Under the pieces are notes generated by a model. That model saw only the letters and a list, made by a program, of their open reading frames with translations. It was not told where the DNA came from and made no database searches. The position numbers and the translations under genes were made by a program. From contig NZ_KB910932.1 in the NCBI RefSeq assembly GCF_000383235.1, positions 40,251 through 104,250 on the forward strand: a DNA stretch of 64,000 nucleotides. The letters run 5' to 3'. The stretch is from Bacillus sp. 123MFChir2. Lineage in GTDB: Bacteria; Bacillota; Bacilli; Bacillales; Bacillaceae_G. Positions 2,250 through 46,944 of the stretch are shown here, piece after piece (the first letter of the stretch is position 1; every line of letters starts with the position of its first letter).

Positions 2250-4881
2250 ATAGGAATAGGTAACTTTCTACTTCGGCATTCCCCGTTAAGTTTACTCGTT
2301 TTCCCCTCCTCCACACCGTACATGAGAGTTTCCCCTCATACGGCGTTCCATCAAATACTCAATAGTTTAATTGGTTCAAGATGACAATGTCTTCGAAGTT
2401 TATTTAGCTTATTTAGGGCTTTTTTATCTTCAATGATATGTTTATATTTCTCAATCGTTTCGGTTGTTGTTGCGTGTATCAATTTATGCACATGCTTATG
2501 GACAATGCGTAGGTTTCGATAATCATCTTTTCCGCCCATATTTCTTGACAGTACATGATGACAGTGTAATTCTTCTATGGTTAACTGTTTTTCTGTTACT
2601 TCACATTTCATTTGTGTCATGGAAGCTCTTGAAATTCGATTATCATTGTATTCAGCACTTTCGTATGGATTATACATTTTAGCTAGTTGAATAATATCAC
2701 CTCTTGTTTGACTCTTAAGACTCTTCGATGATTTTATTCGTCCTTCTTTTGTATAATCACAAATATCTTGACTGAAGTTCATTACTTTTTTATGCTGAAC
2801 GTAGTGAATCGGATAGATACACACATTGTGGATCTTCCATGTTTTCGATGCACATTTCCCATAGAATTTCTTGTACACTGGTGACTTGTCGGTGTCAATT
2901 GGTATCAAGAATCTCCCTACTTGCCTTAGCTTATGATACATAAATAGTGTCAGCGTGAAGTTTAATCTTGCAAAATCTAAATTGCAGTAGGTGGCACAAC
3001 TGTAGTATTCATGCCAACCTAAAATCATACTGTTTAGTTTTGTGACATGGGATGATTGAATGTTTTCGTGAATAATCTTGACTTGCTCTTTTACTTCCTT
3101 TTTCATTCGCTCTAACGCTTTGTCTGCAATATGCGACTGAGCCACATATCCTCCAAAGGTTTTTCCCTTCTTTACAGCTTTGATTTTTACTCCTAAAAAG
3201 TCAGAGTAGCTTTTCCGCAAATTGATGATTTTCGATTTTTCTTCACTAATATCCAACTTCAATCTAATGTTTAACCAATCTTTTACTGCACTTAATATTC
3301 TTTTGGCACTGTTGTAGTCTCGGCACATAATTTTAAAATCATCCGCGTACCTCACAATATACATCTGTTTAAGATTTGTTTTCTTTTGTTGATTGTACTG
3401 GCTTTGGTGCGATTTGTACGTCCTTTGTGTTTCGAATGTTTCCCATTGTGAAGAAATCCACCAATCTAATTCATTTAGTACTATATTAGAAAGGAGTGGT
3501 GAGAGAATTCCTCCCTGTGGTGTTCCTTTATTTGGAATACCTTCTCCTTGAATAGGTGCTTTTAACATAGCTTTAATGATACTAATTAATTTCCTATCTT
3601 GAATACCTAATGCATACATTTGTTTAATTAGTTTTGTATGGTTCACATTATCGAAGAAGCCTTTGATATCAATATCAACTGTGCAATAAAATTTCCCAAT
3701 ATTTATAAGGGTCATCATACGTGATATTGCGTGTTTGGTGCTTCTATTCGGACGGAAACCGTAGCTATGTGGATGGAACTTCGCTTCACATATAGGTTTC
3801 TAACACTTGTTTAATGCATTGCTGTACAAGTCTATCAATGATTGTGGGTATTCCTAATGATCTTGTTTTACCATTTGCTTTCGGAATATGAACTCTTCTT
3901 ACAGTATCAGGCTTGTAATGATTGAACTTATCCTTTACTGCTTGGATGTAGGATTCCAACGATTTATCTTTCATATCCTTTATTGTGATTTTATCTACGC
4001 CAGCCGTTTGACTCCCTGTATTACTTTTGATTGTTCGATATGCCAATCGAATATTATTTTCACTTGCGATGATTTTCATTAGATTACGAAACGAATTTTT
4101 ATTTTGTGACTTTTTGTATAAGTCATCAAATGTTTGTGTCATATCATAATAGTCATTGTATCTAAATTTGTTCGTCACTCTGTTGGGACAACTCCTTTAC
4201 GTGAATTGTTTTCCCTTTCTTACCCGAAAAACAGAGTTGATTTTGAATCAATTAATCTTTTCATATTTGACTTGTGCCTATCCCTCCACCACTTATTATC
4301 ATGGTTTCATCGGTACTGTGGCACTACTTTCACCAAGATGAAGTAGCTTATGATACCCGAAGGCTTTTCGTCTACAACCGTCCTCGACTATGAGTTTTTC
4401 TGTTAAACAGATACAGTTCTTGGTTTCCCACGTTCCAAAGATTCCCGTTGATGTAATACTTAGGTGCTTCCTTTGAGCCTGTTAGCTTGATACCGTCATT
4501 AGCTCGGTATAGAGACTTTCATAACGCAAAATCTTACTCATCTCCACTAACTTACCAGATTCGATAATACCCTATCATCCCAGATAAGATAACCACTTAT
4601 AGACCCGTACATTCGGAAGTTCGTCAATACATTCGTACATTCTCACCATATATTACAACCACCCGACTACTCTAAATGGCAGTTCTGATTCCTGCTCATT
4701 TTCGCCGACTTCACCCCGCTTTAAACAGTTCCACAACAGTCTGCTTTCCTGCTTAGGGGAGTATCAGTGTGAGGGTTTCAGCACAGCATGACGGCTTTCA
4801 TTCCCCTCAAGGATTCTTTAGTTTTCTAATAAATCTTCCCAACTAATATTTCTATTAGGATTTCAGATTAACGTGTCGCAC
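2250..4881 (-). mobile_element. Group II intron inserted in topB
   Basis: A 2632-nt group II intron lying in the same sense as topB. The 5' end reads GTGCGACACG, matching the GUGCG start of bacterial group II introns, and the 3' end is ...CCTAT, matching the AY rule. A domain V hairpin (arms around GCCGTATGAG and CTCATGTACGG, GAAA loop) sits at about 2312-2347, some 60 nt before the 3' end. An intron-encoded reverse transcriptase with an HNH domain fills domain IV. The roughly 700 nt between the 5' end and the RT start are expected to hold domains I-III. The boundaries restore the topB frame exactly. EBS/IBS pairings were not computed. Confidence 0.9.
2351..4178 (-). pseudogene. ltrA: Group II intron reverse transcriptase/maturase, frameshifted
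   Basis: Intron-encoded protein of the RT-maturase-HNH type. A GTG start at 4178 follows an AAAGGAG site. The N-terminal part (RT0-RT2, ending ..QQCIKQVLE) is cut off by a frameshift at about 3797-3799. There an extra base in an A-run turns the expected EPICEAKFHPHSYGFRPN into a stop. The remaining reading frame holds the catalytic YADD (about residue 278 of the repaired protein), the TPQGGILSPLL motif, a maturase/thumb region and a C-terminal HNH endonuclease (CHHVLSRNMGGKDDYRNLRIV). Removing one base would give a 608-residue protein, a normal size. As read, no full-length maturase can be made without frameshifting. A base-calling error in the A-run is possible. Confidence 0.8.
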
Positions 4882-42818: not shown

Positions 42819-44027
42819 TCACGTACTTTTCCGATCATTTGGTAATAACCATGATGATAATCCAATTAACGGTAACATGCTACATAATATCATAATAAAG
42901 TTAAGACTATATATGTCTGCTAATTTCCCAAGTACAACTGCTCCTAATGCACCAAGTCCGAATGCAAGTCCTACAATTAATCCGGATACCATACCAACCT
43001 TCCCTGGAACAAGCTCCTGAGCATACACAACAATTACACTAAAGCTACTCGAACTAATAAATCCAATGCATAGAAACAATGGAACAACCCATACGAGCGA
43101 AACGTGCGGCAATAACAGCGCTAAAGGTGCCGAACCAAGCATGGAAAAAACAATAATATTTCGCTTTCCAAATCGATCTGCTAACGGCCCGCCAAAGAAC
43201 GTTCCAAGTACGCCAGCAATCATGAAAGCAAATACGTAAAATTGTGCATTTTTAATAGATAATCCGTAATGCTCGATTAAATAAAACTGATAAAAGTTTC
43301 CAATACCTGCTCCGTACCATGAGCGAACAAACGTTAAAAATACAAGTAAAACAATAACAAACTTAATTCGGCTGCTTATTACTAAACTGTCAGCTTCTAG
43401 CGCAGCACGTTTCTTCCTTCTTACAGCCCCGCTTACTAACTCTCCTTTATACCACGTTGAAACAAAGTATAATAAAATAATTCCAACCATCGCAAAGCCT
43501 GTAAACCATACAGTTCCAATTTGTCCAAGCGGTACAAATACAAGTGCCGTAAAAATTGGCGCAAGCGAATTCCCTGTATTTCCTCCTACTTGATAAATGG
43601 ATTGTGCTAAACCACGCTTTGCTCCTGCTGCCATATAAGCAACACGTGCGCCTTCAGGATGAAATACAGCGGATCCAAGTCCAATAAATAAAACGGATAA
43701 AATAACAATAAATAAGTTCGGCGCAAACGCAAGTCCAATCATCCCAAGCATGCTTGAAAACATTCCTAATGGCAGTAAAAACGGGGAAGGCTTCTTATCC
43801 GAATACATCCCAAACACCGGCTGCATAATGGAAGATGTCATATTCAAAGCAAAGGCAATCCAGCCCACCTGCATATAGGATAAATTCATCGACTTTTCTA
43901 AAATAGGAAACAACGCCGGTACAACCGCCTGCATCGAATCATTAAGAAAGTGCCCTAAACTAATCGCAAATAAAATACGGTAAATCGTTGGTGTATTCAT
44001 CGCATTCGGCTTTGCTATTGTCTGCAT
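42819..44027 (-). CDS. MFS transporter, fosmidomycin-resistance (Fsr) type
   Basis: 402 residues from the ATG at 44027 (MQTIAKPNAMNTPTIYRILF), preceded by AGGAGAGGAG. Twelve hydrophobic segments. Signature of the Fsr group: SLGHFLNDSMQAVVPALFPILEKSMNLSYMQVGWIAF near the N terminus and the MFS motif A-like MYSDKKPSPFLLPLG. Further: GLGSAVFHPEGARVAYMAAGAKRGLAQSIYQVGGNTGNSLAP. Probably a proton-driven efflux pump. Natural substrate unknown. Confidence 0.88.
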   Translation of the reverse strand: MQTIAKPNAMNTPTIYRILFAISLGHFLNDSMQAVVPALFPILEKSMNLSYMQVGWIAFALNMTSSIMQPVFGMYSDKKPSPFLLPLGMFSSMLGMIGLAFAPNLFIVILSVLFIGLGSAVFHPEGARVAYMAAGAKRGLAQSIYQVGGNTGNSLAPIFTALVFVPLGQIGTVWFTGFAMVGIILLYFVSTWYKGELVSGAVRRKKRAALEADSLVISSRIKFVIVLLVFLTFVRSWYGAGIGNFYQFYLIEHYGLSIKNAQFYVFAFMIAGVLGTFFGGPLADRFGKRNIIVFSMLGSAPLALLLPHVSLVWVVPLFLCIGFISSSSFSVIVVYAQELVPGKVGMVSGLIVGLAFGLGALGAVVLGKLADIYSLNFIMILCSMLPLIGLSSWLLPNDRKST

Positions 44028-44258
44028 GCCACACGCTCCTCTCCTCTTGTGCTGATACCAGCTTCTGCATATGTTCCACACACTTTTATTTTTCTGACTT
44101 TTTAAACAAAATCTATTCTATACCTCTTCTTCCTTTTTTTCCACTTCTATGCTTACCATATAATAAAACTTTATTTTTATTAAAATTCAGAAAAAACATT
44201 TACCATATACATCCATTCATGTATCATAATATAAAATAACAAATAAGGAGCGTTTCTT

Positions 44259-44822
44259 ATGAATCCACTGCTATTAGATTTCCCTTCTGAGTTCTATACG
44301 GAAAGACTTCTCATAAGGATGCCAAGACCTGGAGATGGAAAAGTAGTATATAACGCTATCAATGAATCTATCGAAGAATTAAAACCTTGGATGCCTTTTG
44401 CTCAAAAAGAACAAACAAAACAAGAGGTAGAAGCAAATATTAGAGATTCTCACGTGAAATTTTTGGCACGTGAAGATTTACGATTACTCGTTTTCCTTAA
44501 AGATACAGGGGAGTTTGTCGCCTCTTCAGGGTTACACCGCATTAACTGGGATATTCCGAAATTTGAAATTGGTTATTGGATTCACTCTCATTTTAGCGGG
44601 CAAGGTTACATGACAGAAGCTGTTACAGGAATTGTAGATTTTGCTTTTCATAAATTACAAGCAAATCGAATAGAGATTCGCTGTGACTCAAGAAATGTCA
44701 AAAGCCGTGCCATACCAGAAAGGTTAGGATTTAAATTAGAAGGTATTTTAGAGAGTAATAGTGTATCAATAGATGGGACTGAATTAAGAGATACATGTAT
44801 ATATGCAACGAAAAGATCATGA
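44259..44822 (+). CDS. GNAT acetyltransferase, RimJ/RimL type
   Basis: 187 residues. The opening ERLLIRMPRPGDGKVVYNAINES and the acetyl-CoA motif EIGYWIHSHFSGQGYMTEAVTGIVDFAF, followed by ANRIEIRCDSRNVKSRAIPERLGFKLEG, are standard for the RimJ/RimL (Acetyltransf_3) branch, which includes ribosomal-protein and small-molecule acetyltransferases. AAGGAG site before the ATG. Stands alone with a terminator directly after it. Confidence 0.9.
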   Translation: MNPLLLDFPSEFYTERLLIRMPRPGDGKVVYNAINESIEELKPWMPFAQKEQTKQEVEANIRDSHVKFLAREDLRLLVFLKDTGEFVASSGLHRINWDIPKFEIGYWIHSHFSGQGYMTEAVTGIVDFAFHKLQANRIEIRCDSRNVKSRAIPERLGFKLEGILESNSVSIDGTELRDTCIYATKRS

Positions 44823-44874: not shown

Positions 44875-46137
44875 TTAGTGTATTGCATACCTTTTATACT
44901 TTTCGAAATCACTCATTTTACATTCCACGGTAATCTTCGTACCTTCATTTTCATAGTCTGTCGATAAAACGTTAGCATGCTCGTTAAAATAAGAAATTAG
45001 GTGTCCTTGATCATAAGGAATTAACATTTCACACTTTGTATAATCTTTATAAATTTGTGTGCGAATCATATGCACAAGCTCATCAATACCTACTTTTTGT
45101 TTCGCAGACAAATATACCCGATCATCTTGTACTTTTGGAATTTCAATATCAATAACGTCTGCTTTATTATAAGCATAAATTGCCTGGATATTTTCCACGC
45201 CGATTTTTTTTAACGTTTGATTCGTAATCTCAATCAGATGCTCATAGTTCGGATTTGCATAATCCACAACATGAACCAATAAATCAGCCTCCGCCACTTC
45301 TTCTAACGTCGAACGGAACGCTTTCACAAGATGATGCGGCAATTTACTAACGAATCCAACGGTATCTGTTAATAAAAATGATTTGTTATCTGGCAATTGA
45401 ATATTTCGCACAGCTGTTTCCAGCGTCGCAAACAACATATCTTTTTCAAATACTTGTTTCTCTGCAGATCCGTTAAACATTTCAAGCATCGCATTCATCG
45501 TTGTTGATTTCCCAGCATTTGTATACCCTACTAATGCAACAACAGGCACTTCATTTTTCTTACGCTGTTTACGCTGCGTTTGACGCTGTGCAACAAGTGC
45601 TTCTAACTCTTTATTTAACGTGGCAATTTGCTCTTCAATCTTACGGCGATCAAGCTCTAACTTCTTTTCCCCCACACCTTTGTTTTTCGTACCAACACCA
45701 CCGCTTTGTCTTCCTAACGATTCACGGAGGCCAATTAAACGAGGCATCATATATTGTAAATGAGCTACCTCAACCTGTAATTGTGCTTCCTTCGTTTTAG
45801 CACGCTGCGCAAAAATATCTAAAATTAAAATCGTACGATCAATCACTTTACAATCTAAATCGGCTTCTAAATTTCGAATTTGTGAAGGCGATAACTCATC
45901 ATTAAAAATGACCAAATTCGCATCCGCTTCTTTCACGAACGCTGACACTTCTTCAATCTTACCCGTTCCAATATAATGAGATGGATTTACACGATGTAAA
46001 TTTTGCGTCACTTTCCCTATCACTTCTACATCGCAAGCTTCTGCTAAGTTCACTAACTCTTCCATTGAATATTCGAAATCACTTTCACTATTTAAATTCA
46101 CTCCGACTAATATTGCTTTTTGTACTATTTGTTCCAT
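44875..46137 (-). CDS. hflX: Ribosome-associated GTPase HflX (possibly HflXr-type)
   Basis: 420-residue GTPase that binds the 50S subunit and splits stalled 70S ribosomes. The N-terminal nucleotide-binding-like HflX domain includes NPSHYIGTGKIEEVSAFV (about 51-68) and NDELSPSQIRNLEADLDCKVIDRT (79-102). A long coiled coil follows (about 160-195). The G domain has G1 GYTNAGKST (204-212), G3 DTVGF and G4 YNKADV. GGAGG precedes the ATG. The gene has a leader of about 390 nt with a short R-L-R-encoding ORF and two intrinsic terminators, a layout expected for antibiotic-induced attenuation. In Listeria an HflX homologue (HflXr) contributes to macrolide/lincosamide resistance. I infer, but cannot prove, that this is the equivalent. 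Confidence 0.92.
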   Translation of the reverse strand: MEQIVQKAILVGVNLNSESDFEYSMEELVNLAEACDVEVIGKVTQNLHRVNPSHYIGTGKIEEVSAFVKEADANLVIFNDELSPSQIRNLEADLDCKVIDRTILILDIFAQRAKTKEAQLQVEVAHLQYMMPRLIGLRESLGRQSGGVGTKNKGVGEKKLELDRRKIEEQIATLNKELEALVAQRQTQRKQRKKNEVPVVALVGYTNAGKSTTMNAMLEMFNGSAEKQVFEKDMLFATLETAVRNIQLPDNKSFLLTDTVGFVSKLPHHLVKAFRSTLEEVAEADLLVHVVDYANPNYEHLIEITNQTLKKIGVENIQAIYAYNKADVIDIEIPKVQDDRVYLSAKQKVGIDELVHMIRTQIYKDYTKCEMLIPYDQGHLISYFNEHANVLSTDYENEGTKITVECKMSDFEKYKRYAIH

Positions 46138-46171
46138 ATATTTATTCCTCCATTTCGATTACGCGCAAACT

Positions 46172-46201
46172 AAAAAACACAAGCCGCTGCCTGTGTTTTT
46201 A
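46172..46201 (-). terminator. Leader terminator 2, just before hflX
   Basis: Minus-strand stem AAAAACACA / TGTGTTTTT with a 10-nt GC-rich loop, ending in a T-run, only 35 nt before the hflX start. Since it lies between promoter and gene in the same orientation it should act as an attenuator. A 36-codon reading frame beginning at about 46286 ends inside it. Confidence 0.7.
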
Positions 46202-46333
46202 ATAAACGGATGAGAGCACAACAAATAAACATAAAAGCATCGCTTCTCGCTTGTTCAATGGTCGTCAAAGCCAGCATCATACAACATAAAAATGTTTGTA
46301 TACATGCATTGCGTCATTCTGTTTTAAAGGTAA

Positions 46334-46369
46334 AACAAAAAGAGGGCGTATTCGTCCTCCCCTCTTTTC
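46334..46369 (-). terminator. Leader terminator 1 of hflX
   Basis: Minus-strand stem AAAAGAGGG / CCCTCTTTTT with a loop of about 13 nt, then TTTTTGTTTT: a strong intrinsic terminator placed about 90 nt downstream of the leader ORF stop and about 200 nt before hflX. An upstream TCTCTTT segment can pair with AAAGAGG of the stem, a possible antiterminator. Confidence 0.75.
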
Positions 46370-46455
46370 ACATATAAGTTCAATTGGGTTCCTTTAAAGA
46401 GACAGACCAATCCCGTTTACTCTGTACACAGACAGAGCCTTTGAGCGCTATTCAA

Positions 46456-46497
46456 TTATTGGCACAAAGTATTGAGACGTAATCTGATTAAGATCAA
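46456..46497 (-). CDS. Putative macrolide-type leader peptide of hflX
   Basis: A 13-codon ORF, TTG start, encoding MILIRLRLNTLCQ. A strong GGAGGGG Shine-Dalgarno ends about 6-8 nt before the start. The R-L-R motif is the +x+ pattern known to stall macrolide-bound ribosomes. The peptide aligns with the ErmD leader MTHSMRLRFPTLNQ (R-L-R-x-x-T-L-x-Q shared). It lies about 30 nt from the predicted transcription start and upstream of the leader terminators. Translation is not shown, but the combination of Shine-Dalgarno, motif and context is compelling. Confidence 0.7.
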   Translation of the reverse strand: MILIRLRLNTLCQ

Positions 46498-46530
46498 AGG
46501 AGACCCCTCCGTTCATTAAAAGTTATATAA

Positions 46531-46559
46531 ATTTTAGCATAGTTATAGAGCTGACACAA
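46531..46559 (-). promoter_or_regulatory. Predicted promoter of the hflX leader
   Basis: Minus-strand -35 TTGTGT, 17-bp spacer, -10 TAAAAT. Transcription would start near 46524 and give a leader of about 390 nt before hflX. The region 46560-46908 beyond it is AT-rich with no feature seen. Confidence 0.55.
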
Positions 46560-46944
46560 GAATAAACCCCATTTATTAACATAAAGAAAATCGCTATTTT
46601 TCTATTTTATTCATCATTTTTTGCACCTGTTTCTCATTTATTGTGTCCAATTTCTGCAACAATAATATGAATAACCACTTTCATTCATACACTTTAAACA
46701 AACCAAAAATCCAAAAGTTATTAATAATCTGATAAAATCATTATAAAGTAGCAACCTTTCTTAATACTAGAAAATATGGTTTTCTCAAAAAAACATACAA
46801 ATCATCAAGCACAATTACTAATGACTCCAAAAATAATCCGTGATTTTGAGAGAATAACATTTTTTTCGCTCACAGATAAAAACGAAATGGCATCTACCGC
46901 GCTCCACTTTGATACATACTAAATTATATTATGGGGGAATATGT

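What the first reader, a model, noticed from the sequence alone, without database searches (positions are those of the whole stretch)
46138..46560. hflX leader with an R-L-R peptide: probable macrolide-sensing attenuator
Seen: promoter-like -35/-10, then a 13-codon ORF (46497-46456, MILIRLRLNTLCQ) with a strong GGAGG site, then an intrinsic terminator (46334-46369) and a second one (46172-46201) before hflX. Known: R/K-x-R/K leader peptides stall ribosomes carrying macrolides, and ErmD leader MTHSMRLRFPTLNQ shares R-L-R-x-x-T-L-x-Q. Known, as I recall: a Listeria HflX homologue (HflXr) that splits stalled ribosomes is induced by antibiotics through attenuation. Inference: macrolides stall translation of this ORF, shift the leader fold, and allow hflX transcription.
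Basis: partly seen in the sequence, partly recalled or inferred. Interest (0 to 1): 0.87.

Follow-up and report, generated by a model that had tools for sequence, protein, structure and literature searches.

The report
Macrolide-sensing RNA switch before hflX
The stretch before this hflX gene is very probably an antibiotic-sensing RNA switch of a type already known in Listeria and Bacillus, and recognisably the same RNA also sits before at least seven other kinds of macrolide- or lincosamide-resistance genes in Bacillus-like bacteria.

Summary
In detail: a 13-codon TTG-start ORF (MILIRLRLNTLCQ), a strong SD and two terminators precede hflX. New here: (1) 51 of 70 hflX relatives carry the leader, 48 with R/K-x-R; a stem pairing those codons with a downstream strand covaries. 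(2) A model built only from hflX leaders matches 143/397, 127/198 and 81/299 sampled genomes; of 200 hits examined 75 precede hflX and 115 precede Mph, Mef, Msr, Erm, TlrB/RlmA, LmrB or macrolide-esterase genes. By plain BLAST the window leader is ~80% identical over 97 nt to that of a plasmid ErmD gene. (3) The gene-proximal terminator has a family-wide antiterminator: its 5' arm and flank pair with the same strand (110/184 loci; controls 5 and 8). Weak points: T1 has no supported antiterminator; the window's own fold flips only if the uORF SD is covered too; the nearest hflX relative in the tree lacks the leader; nothing was tested by experiment.

The parts
46531..46559 (-). putative promoter TTGTGT-17-TAAAAT with TGn
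   Evidence: by eye; not listed by the consensus scan; start site about 46524 is inferred
46504..46510 (-). Shine-Dalgarno GGAGGGG of the leader ORF
   Evidence: GGAGG-type SD before the uORF in the relatives
46456..46497 (-). leader ORF MILIRLRLNTLCQ (TTG start); R-L-R = codons 5-7 (46485-46477)
   Evidence: R/K-x-R in 177 of 200 homologous leaders against 2 of 354 control frames
46477..46486 (-). strand 1: 5' arm of P1 (CAGATTACGT, over the R-L-R codons)
   Evidence: P1 covariation; pairing 0.88 in the free window RNA
46439..46469 (-). hairpin A region (CTTTG..CAAAG)
   Evidence: 88.8% of cells paired in A1, 91.2% in A2; rarely formed in the window's own predicted fold
46420..46437 (-). hairpin B (CTCTG..CAGAG); its 5' arm and loop also match the T2 5' arm
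   Evidence: RNAalifold, 5 of 7 pairs with double changes
46403..46418 (-). strand 2 / S1 (AAACGGGATTGGTCTG): 3' arm of P1 and part of the T2 antiterminator
46334..46369 (-). terminator T1 (AAAAGAGGG..CCCTCTTTTTGTTTT)
   Evidence: similar hairpins in several relatives, not listed in others; no supported antiterminator
46201..46210 (-). box TCCGTTTATT on the 5' side of T2, complementary to S1
   Evidence: window duplex -28.6 kcal/mol, 22 of 2000 shuffles as good
46172..46201 (-). terminator T2 (ACACAGGC..GCTTGTGT + T run), gene-proximal, shared across the family
   Evidence: T2-like terminator in 129 of 193 loci
44875..46137 (-). hflX, of the hflXr type
   Evidence: TIGR03156 459 bits; tree distance 0.61-0.81 to its 15 nearest relatives against 3.32-3.65 to four second hflX copies

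Best explanation
The 5' leader of this hflX (hflXr type) is a ribosome-controlled transcription attenuator of the ermD/ermK-Listeria rli80 kind. Without drug, strand 1 (the R-L-R codons) pairs with strand 2 (S1) to form P1, the gene-proximal terminator T2 folds and transcription stops (inferred from the fold). A macrolide- or lincosamide-bound ribosome stalls with R-L in the tunnel and the second Arg codon in the A site (recalled from ErmDL; not tested here) and blocks P1. Freed S1 and the 5' arm of hairpin B then pair with the box and 5' arm of T2, so RNA polymerase reads into hflX. HflX then splits stalled ribosomes (proposed for Listeria HflXr, inferred here). Shown by comparison: leader homology, the R-x-R peptide, P1 covariation, and T2-S1/B complementarity. 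Inferred: drug induction, the exact stall site, kinetics, and how T1 is passed.
For: P1 with hairpins A and B in 48 distinct hflX leaders: 89.8% of cells pair (slid registers 34.5-51.7%), 43 double-change cells against 14.1 in shuffles, e.g. U-A 29 / A-U 17 at one P1 pair. In 105 leaders of other genes, not used for the model: 90.1% against 23.4-53.6% slid, 34 double-change cells against 9.3 in shuffles. Antiterminator for T2: z < -2.5 in 110 of 184 loci; controls 5 (upstream region) and 8 (reverse complement). Native pairing beats leader swaps: mean rank 0.185, best decile in 68 of 129. Ensemble folding of the 265 terminators within reach: T2-like ones (n 104, summed over classes) lose at least 0.5 probability in 36 cases with a stalled-ribosome block and 54 if the SD is also covered; others (n 161) 4 and 12. 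In the window's RNA T2 goes from 0.86 to 0.00 and the antiterminator to 0.93-0.99 when the block reaches 30 nt upstream of the P site. RNA homology to the leader of a predicted ErmD gene on B. licheniformis pBL141-1, 79.8% over 97 nt, E 1e-12. 190 of 200 hits of a model trained on hflX leaders precede hflX or macrolide/lincosamide-type resistance genes. Listeria mutants and a GFP fusion showed this mechanism for rli80 (PMC6310831 passages).
Against: In the window's own RNA a stalled block reaching only 15-25 nt upstream of the P site leaves T2 at 0.79-0.86, because the uORF SD region AATGAACGGA pairs with the T2 box (0.90-0.99). SD-box and S1-box pairing have the same z in the window (-2.79 and -2.77), though over the family it is 2 of 119 against 93 of 119. 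T1 stays formed in every transcript ending at T1 (0.96-0.97) and its proposed antiterminator has probability 0.00 in the window; family support is weak, 27 of 131 against 4. A ribosome placed at the stop codon also lowers T2 in 29 of 104 cases. In A2 one slid register (-3) reaches 29 double-change cells, near the observed 34, and the CGTTT part of P1 pairs in only 76% of cells. In A1 the CCGACT/AAGCGG rows and L043 do not fit P1. The swap test is near chance for mef (0.44, n 6). 19 of 70 hflX relatives, including the nearest, L008, have no such leader. Leaders of species close to the source could not be read.
Confidence: 0.87

Rival explanations
1. Translation attenuation: the stalled ribosome mainly frees the hflX ribosome-binding site rather than stopping termination.
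For: B. subtilis tlrB uses both a terminator and SD sequestration (PMC6851288 passages).
Against: In the window the hflX SD (GGAGG, 46151-46147) lies 3' of T2 and outside the T2 stem; the complementarity found is to a terminator flank and arm.
Confidence: 0.06
2. T1, not T2, is the regulated terminator, with a kinetic (co-transcriptional) antiterminator that equilibrium folding misses; T2 is a back-up.
For: T1-like hairpins recur in relatives; 27 of 131 loci show complementarity of a proximal terminator arm to the S1 tail against 4 in the control.
Against: No AGAGGG..CCCTCT hairpin is listed for Paenibacillus-type leaders such as L002, L005, L010, L013 that keep T2; AT1 probability 0.00 in the window.
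Confidence: 0.15
3. The leader answers general translation stress or Arg/Leu-tRNA shortage rather than macrolides.
For: HflX also acts under heat stress (stated in PMC6310831); the uORF is rich in Leu and has two Arg codons.
Against: The same RNA heads Erm, Mph, Mef, Msr, TlrB and esterase genes; six Arg codons are used at each Arg position while R-x-R is kept.
Confidence: 0.04
4. The uORF and hairpins are chance features of an ordinary 5' UTR.
For: 19 of 70 hflX relatives do without them.
Against: 51 of 70 keep the leader; covariation; matches down to E 7e-32 per genome.
Confidence: 0.01

Closest known systems
Listeria monocytogenes rli80-hflXr attenuator (PMC6310831, passages)
   Same: RLR uORF, premature terminator, antiterminator and anti-antiterminator before an hflX; induced by lincomycin (shown there).
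   Different: The Listeria leader sequence was not on hand, so RNA homology was not tested; in the passages I read one terminator is described, here there are two.
ermD/ermK attenuator of Bacillus licheniformis (PMC4335068 passages; Kwak 1991 recalled and seen only as a citation)
   Same: RNA homology (79.8% over 97 nt to a plasmid leader before a predicted ErmD), RLR peptide ending TL-x-Q, two terminators by eye, T2 with a box.
   Different: Controls a methyltransferase, not hflX.
uORFC-6-1 motif (PMC8632094, passages)
   Same: 51 representatives, predominantly Bacillales, primarily before hflX, Arg-Leu-Arg uORF, covarying structure downstream of the start codon.
   Different: Its consensus figure is not held, so identity with my core could not be checked; the passages do not mention a gene-proximal T2 pairing or the other resistance genes.
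tlrB (yxjB) leader of B. subtilis (PMC6851288, passages)
   Same: R-x-R peptide, terminator, tylosin-induced.
   Different: 9-codon uORF with RYR at its end, SD-sequestering hairpin; its sequence was not compared here.
mef(E)/mel leader of S. pneumoniae (PMC4335068, passages)
   Same: RLR peptide, transcription attenuation.
   Different: The authors note no discernible homology to the ermK leader; not compared here.

Membership tests
ermD/K-type leader RNA family | sequence homology of the leader core to that of an ermD gene | tested here: met
   blastn of the window leader to B. licheniformis pBL141-1, 79.8% over 97 nt, E 1e-12; a predicted ErmD starts about 290 nt downstream
ermD/K-type leader RNA family | R-x-R uORF with SD at the head of the element | tested here: met
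ermD/K-type leader RNA family | two terminators, the second with a box complementary to the leader | tested here: met
   window; ermD plasmid leader: by eye
ermD/K-type leader RNA family | macrolide-dependent ribosome stall and readthrough | not testable with these tools
   needs experiment
Listeria rli80-hflXr attenuator | RLR uORF and terminator upstream of hflX | tested here: met
Listeria rli80-hflXr attenuator | gene belongs to the hflXr and not the housekeeping hflX clade | tested here: inconclusive
   far from four second hflX copies, but the Listeria proteins were not on hand
Listeria rli80-hflXr attenuator | mutually exclusive terminator/antiterminator | tested here: inconclusive
   supported in the family for T2, conditional on SD coverage in the window's own RNA, not supported for T1
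uORFC-6-1 | matches the published consensus structure | not testable with these tools
   figure not held; no Rfam family reached its gathering score in the leader

The most novel reading that the evidence does not exclude
One homologous attenuator RNA (uORF + P1 + hairpins A/B + shared strand S1 + distal terminator T2 whose flank imitates the Arg codons) has been spread as a cassette in front of at least eight different kinds of macrolide/lincosamide defence genes (HflXr, Mph, Mef, Msr, Erm, TlrB/RlmA, LmrB, macrolide esterases), on chromosomes and plasmids, making a regulon without a regulator protein. Where the gene is an esterase, LmrB or an SDR enzyme the R-x-R motif is mostly missing (present in 0 of 4, 1 of 5, 0 of 3), which suggests re-tuned drug sensing; the leader therefore also points to unrecognised resistance genes such as the SDR oxidoreductase.
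Probability: 0.75. Interest if true: 0.75.

Novelty: new member of a known kind. Interest (0 to 1): 0.58.

Why it matters
It makes hflX of this organism a probable inducible, intrinsic macrolide/lincosamide-tolerance gene. It also indicates that leaders treated in print as separate or independently evolved (PMC11264731, passages, postulates that uORFs and palindromes within the erm family may have evolved independently) are, in Bacillales and Paenibacillales, often one RNA family. Such a family can be searched for as a unit, used to find unknown resistance genes by their leader, and used to ask how the peptide sets drug specificity while the RNA stays constant.

Tried and rejected
AT1 (GTCTGTCTCTTT with the T1 5' arm) was my first antiterminator; folding gave it probability 0.00 in the window and there is only weak family support. 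A first anchor pattern was faulty and missed most loci, corrected. One search picked a wrong uORF in L001, L052 and L055 and missed L007, L017 and L033, corrected; in turn missed L043 (taken) and gave a spurious pick in L070 (dropped). RNAalifold alone recovers only hairpin B; P1 needed a stated structure. SD-box pairing as the general switch: rejected for the family (2 of 119; 0 of 58 hflX leaders), not excluded for the window. Second uORFs between T1 and hflX: frames seen by eye, no SD, not pursued. Conservation in close relatives of the source organism: reach a family of 19 genomes with no match of the leader DNA and one hflX at E <= 1e-120, so this is untested. The tree was badly rooted (its 'hflX1 clade' printout contains everything); I use only its distances, its local support (0.858 for window + L008) and the parsimony count (4 changes; 120 with, 18 without leader). 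L007 (uORF frame broken) was left out of alignment A1; L084 and L097, close to L083 and L092, were left out of A2 (105 of 107 distinct). Class names rest on single-linkage clusters and NCBIfam scans of 10 representatives; members were not scanned one by one, and the gene assigned is the nearest downstream ORF that falls in a cluster of two or more loci. In one search, 7 of 200 hits had another or no callable gene (L165, L207; L089, L110, L126, L139, L188). Of the later 28 loci (L293 is the same place as L252) 24 had a known class nearby; the four without are L298 (alpha/beta hydrolase, 52 bits), L301 (partial match; the gene looks TipAS-like to me, recalled), L304 and L305 (27.8 and 24.8 bits, probably false). 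The shuffles move two-base blocks; only those keep dinucleotides strictly.

Full report
What is there. On the minus strand the window holds hflX (46137-44875; HflX equivalog TIGR03156, 459 bits) preceded by a 360-nt stretch from the start of a 13-codon ORF (46497-46456, TTG start, MILIRLRLNTLCQ, SD GGAGGGG) with two terminators, T1 (46369-46334) and T2 (about 46200-46173). The promoter is only moderate: TTGTGT-17-TAAAAT with a TGn extension, by eye; the scan lists none. None of 100 shuffles of the 389-nt leader folds as well (z -3.97). The window looks like the Bacillus cereus group to me (recalled, not tested); no whole genome is held for it.

Conservation with hflX. A scan of species genomes gave 70 hflX loci at 51-78% identity in the best segment, none titled as a member of the B. 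cereus group. Reading upstream of each, 51 of 70 have the leader with a GGAGG-type SD; 48 of these have R/K-x-R, L042 has H-F-R, L066 T-F-R and L007 a broken frame. The other 19 have none; the model described below finds nothing in those 19 nor in the four loci of second hflX copies. The nearest relative in the protein tree, L008 (Priestia taiwanensis, 75% identical), is one of the 19.

The switch. In alignment A1 (51 leaders, window included, L007 left out) the uORF codons around R-x-R pair with a strand about 60-80 nt downstream (S1): P1. Over P1 and hairpins A and B, 89.8% of cells pair against 34.5-51.7% in slid registers, with 43 double-change cells against 14.1 in shuffles (24 in the best slid register); single P1 pairs switch between U-A (29) and A-U (17), or U-A (38) and G-C (6). 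The codons change with the partner: CCGTTT with AAACGG, CCGATT with AATCGG, CCGAGT with ACTCAGG; exceptions are CCGACT with AAGCGG (2 rows) and L043. In the free window RNA P1 has probability 0.88.

The gene-proximal terminator. T2 has the form ACACAGGC..GCCTGTGT + T run in many relatives (T2-like in 129 of 193 loci) and is preceded by a short box. Box and 5' arm are complementary to S1 and to the 5' arm of hairpin B: in the window 10 + 9 pairs, TCTGTCTGTGTACAGAGTAAACGGG with TCCGTTTATTAAAAACACAGGCAG. This would be the antiterminator, exclusive with both P1 and T2. Over the 200 leaders described below, the best terminator flank/arm shows z < -2.5 against this strand in 110 of 184 loci that have a callable terminator, against 5 for a region upstream of the element and 8 for the reverse complement (an earlier run with strict dinucleotide shuffles gives 115 of 184 when the classes are summed). 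The test takes the best of up to a few terminators per locus; the controls were treated alike. Native partners beat partners swapped from other loci (mean rank 0.185; best decile 68 of 129), weakest for mef (0.44, n 6). Ensemble folding of the 265 terminators that lie within 420 nt of an R-x-R uORF, with a ribosome-sized block on R-x-R, lowers T2-like terminators by 0.5 or more in 36 of 104 cases, 54 of 104 if the SD is covered too, against 4 and 12 of 161 other terminators; a block at the stop codon does so in 29 and 1 (sums over classes).

Where this is conditional in the window. With a stalled block reaching 15-25 nt upstream of the P site T2 stays at 0.79-0.86, because AATGAACGGA at the uORF SD takes the T2 box (0.90-0.99); when the block reaches 30 nt upstream and so covers the SD, T2 falls to 0.00 and the antiterminator rises to 0.93-0.99 (an initiating ribosome at the start codon gives 0.02 and 0.92-0.98). 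Whether the SD is free behind a ribosome stalled at codon 6 decides this. SD-box complementarity is not a family feature (2 of 119 against 93 of 119 for S1/B). T1 stays formed (0.96-0.97) in all models of the transcript ending at T1, and I have no supported way past it.

The same RNA before other genes. A covariance model (R1) built only from the 51 hflX leaders matched 143 of 397 genomes of one order, 127 of 198 of the order of Paenibacillus selenitireducens, 81 of 299 of the class and 14 of 299 of the phylum, at E <= 0.01 per genome (the samples overlap, and at this limit a few genomes per search are expected by chance). I examined 200 hits: 130 of those (30 loci given with it, 20 second copies, 80 more down the list to about 44 bits) and 70 (30 given with it and 40 picked by hand over the score range, favouring second copies). 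The nearest clustered downstream gene was hflX in 75, macrolide-phosphotransferase-like in 31, Mef-like MFS in 23, Msr-type ABC-F in 21, Erm in 18, RlmA/TlrB-like in 13, LmrB-like in 5, macrolide esterase in 4, an SDR oxidoreductase in 3, and another or no callable gene in 7 (names of representatives by NCBIfam). In 28 further loci 24 had one of these classes. R/K-x-R is found in 177 of 200 leaders, control frames 2 of 354, with six Arg codons in use at each Arg position; it is absent in the esterase (0 of 4) and SDR (0 of 3) leaders and in 4 of 5 LmrB leaders. On 105 leaders of non-hflX genes, aligned without regard to structure, the P1/A/B scheme pairs in 90.1% of cells (23.4-53.6% slid), with 34 double-change cells against 9.3 in shuffles; against it, the register slid by -3 reaches 29 such cells, and the CGTTT part of P1 pairs in 76% only.

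An independent line that does not use the model: plain blastn of 126 nt of the window leader against plasmids gives 13 records. Of the ten regions opened, the next listed gene is a putative RNA methyltransferase followed by msr(I) or an Msr ABC-F (P. megaterium, P. filamentosa), a predicted ErmD (B. licheniformis pBL141-1), mef(F) followed by msr(G) (Lysinibacillus capsici, Macrococcoides canis, Exiguobacterium acetylicum EYLC1), a macrolide 2'-phosphotransferase (Planococcus maritimus), an MFS gene before msr(G) (Metabacillus dongyingensis), an SDR oxidoreductase (Latilactobacillus curvatus), and in one (E. acetylicum SI17) the record ends before the gene. The pBL141-1 leader has MTHSMRLRFPTLNQ and, by eye, a T1-like and a T2 terminator and a box.

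What is known. All papers were seen in passages only. PMC6310831 shows the mechanism for Listeria hflXr/rli80, with uORF start-codon and antiterminator mutants, and names B. cereus and B. anthracis among species carrying genes of the hflXr subfamily. PMC8632094 describes uORFC-6-1, 51 representatives primarily before hflX, predominantly in Bacillales, with a conserved Arg-Leu-Arg. PMC4335068 notes two adjacent terminators in ermK and no discernible homology between the mef(E) and ermK leaders. PMC11264731 postulates that uORFs and palindromes of erm genes may have evolved independently. PMC6851288, PMC10314930, PMC10201436 and PMC9927578 were also looked at. My searches found no paper describing one leader RNA shared by these gene classes; most subscription papers, the supplements and the figures were not available, so this is not a strong claim of priority.

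Verdict. The wider result, a shared attenuator cassette over the macrolide resistome with an antiterminator that reaches 200 nt to the gene-proximal terminator, is the interesting part; it is well supported by comparison and untested by experiment.

Noticed in passing
L124, L208, L278 and L314 (Latilactobacillus curvatus plasmid CP117686, 2568-3443): The same leader precedes an SDR oxidoreductase (57-75% identical to each other), with uORFs that lack R-x-R (such as MIVIIRALNS, MLVIFRALNS, MIDILTLNR). Relatives of this SDR (most at 60-80% identity) are on 1002 plasmid records, mostly enterobacteria; in the two opened it lies beside aph(3')-Ia and IS26, or floR with tet(X). A candidate unrecognised resistance enzyme.
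   Followed up: partly
L224, L227, L233, L240: Leader before macrolide esterases (macrolide-esterase models match L227) with uORFs lacking R-x-R, suggesting a different inducing drug.
   Followed up: partly
L298 (1501 onward): 52-bit leader match before an alpha/beta-hydrolase-like gene of unknown function (named by eye), uORF MEVLKLGIFISM without R-x-R.
   Followed up: no
G194 C10 (L084, L109) and G347 C3 (L080, L112): Two copies of the leader about 7 kb apart, facing away from each other, one before erm and one before hflX.
   Followed up: partly
window 46517-46508 and 46210-46201: The SD region of the uORF (AATGAACGGA) is about as complementary to the T2 box as S1 is; this is rare in the family (2 of 119) and makes the window's predicted switch depend on SD coverage.
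   Followed up: partly
Paenibacillus-type K-F-R leaders such as L002, L005, L013: A conserved stretch TAGAATATGCC some tens of nt after S1, in leaders where no T1-like hairpin was listed; unexplained.
   Followed up: no
window 2250-2348 and 4652-4826 (-): Group II intron parts (RF00029, RF02004).
   Followed up: no
window 44259-44822 (+) and 42819-44081 (-): Next to hflX: an acetyltransferase with weak similarity to RimL/RimJ models facing it, and an MFS transporter with weak similarity to several pump models.
   Followed up: no
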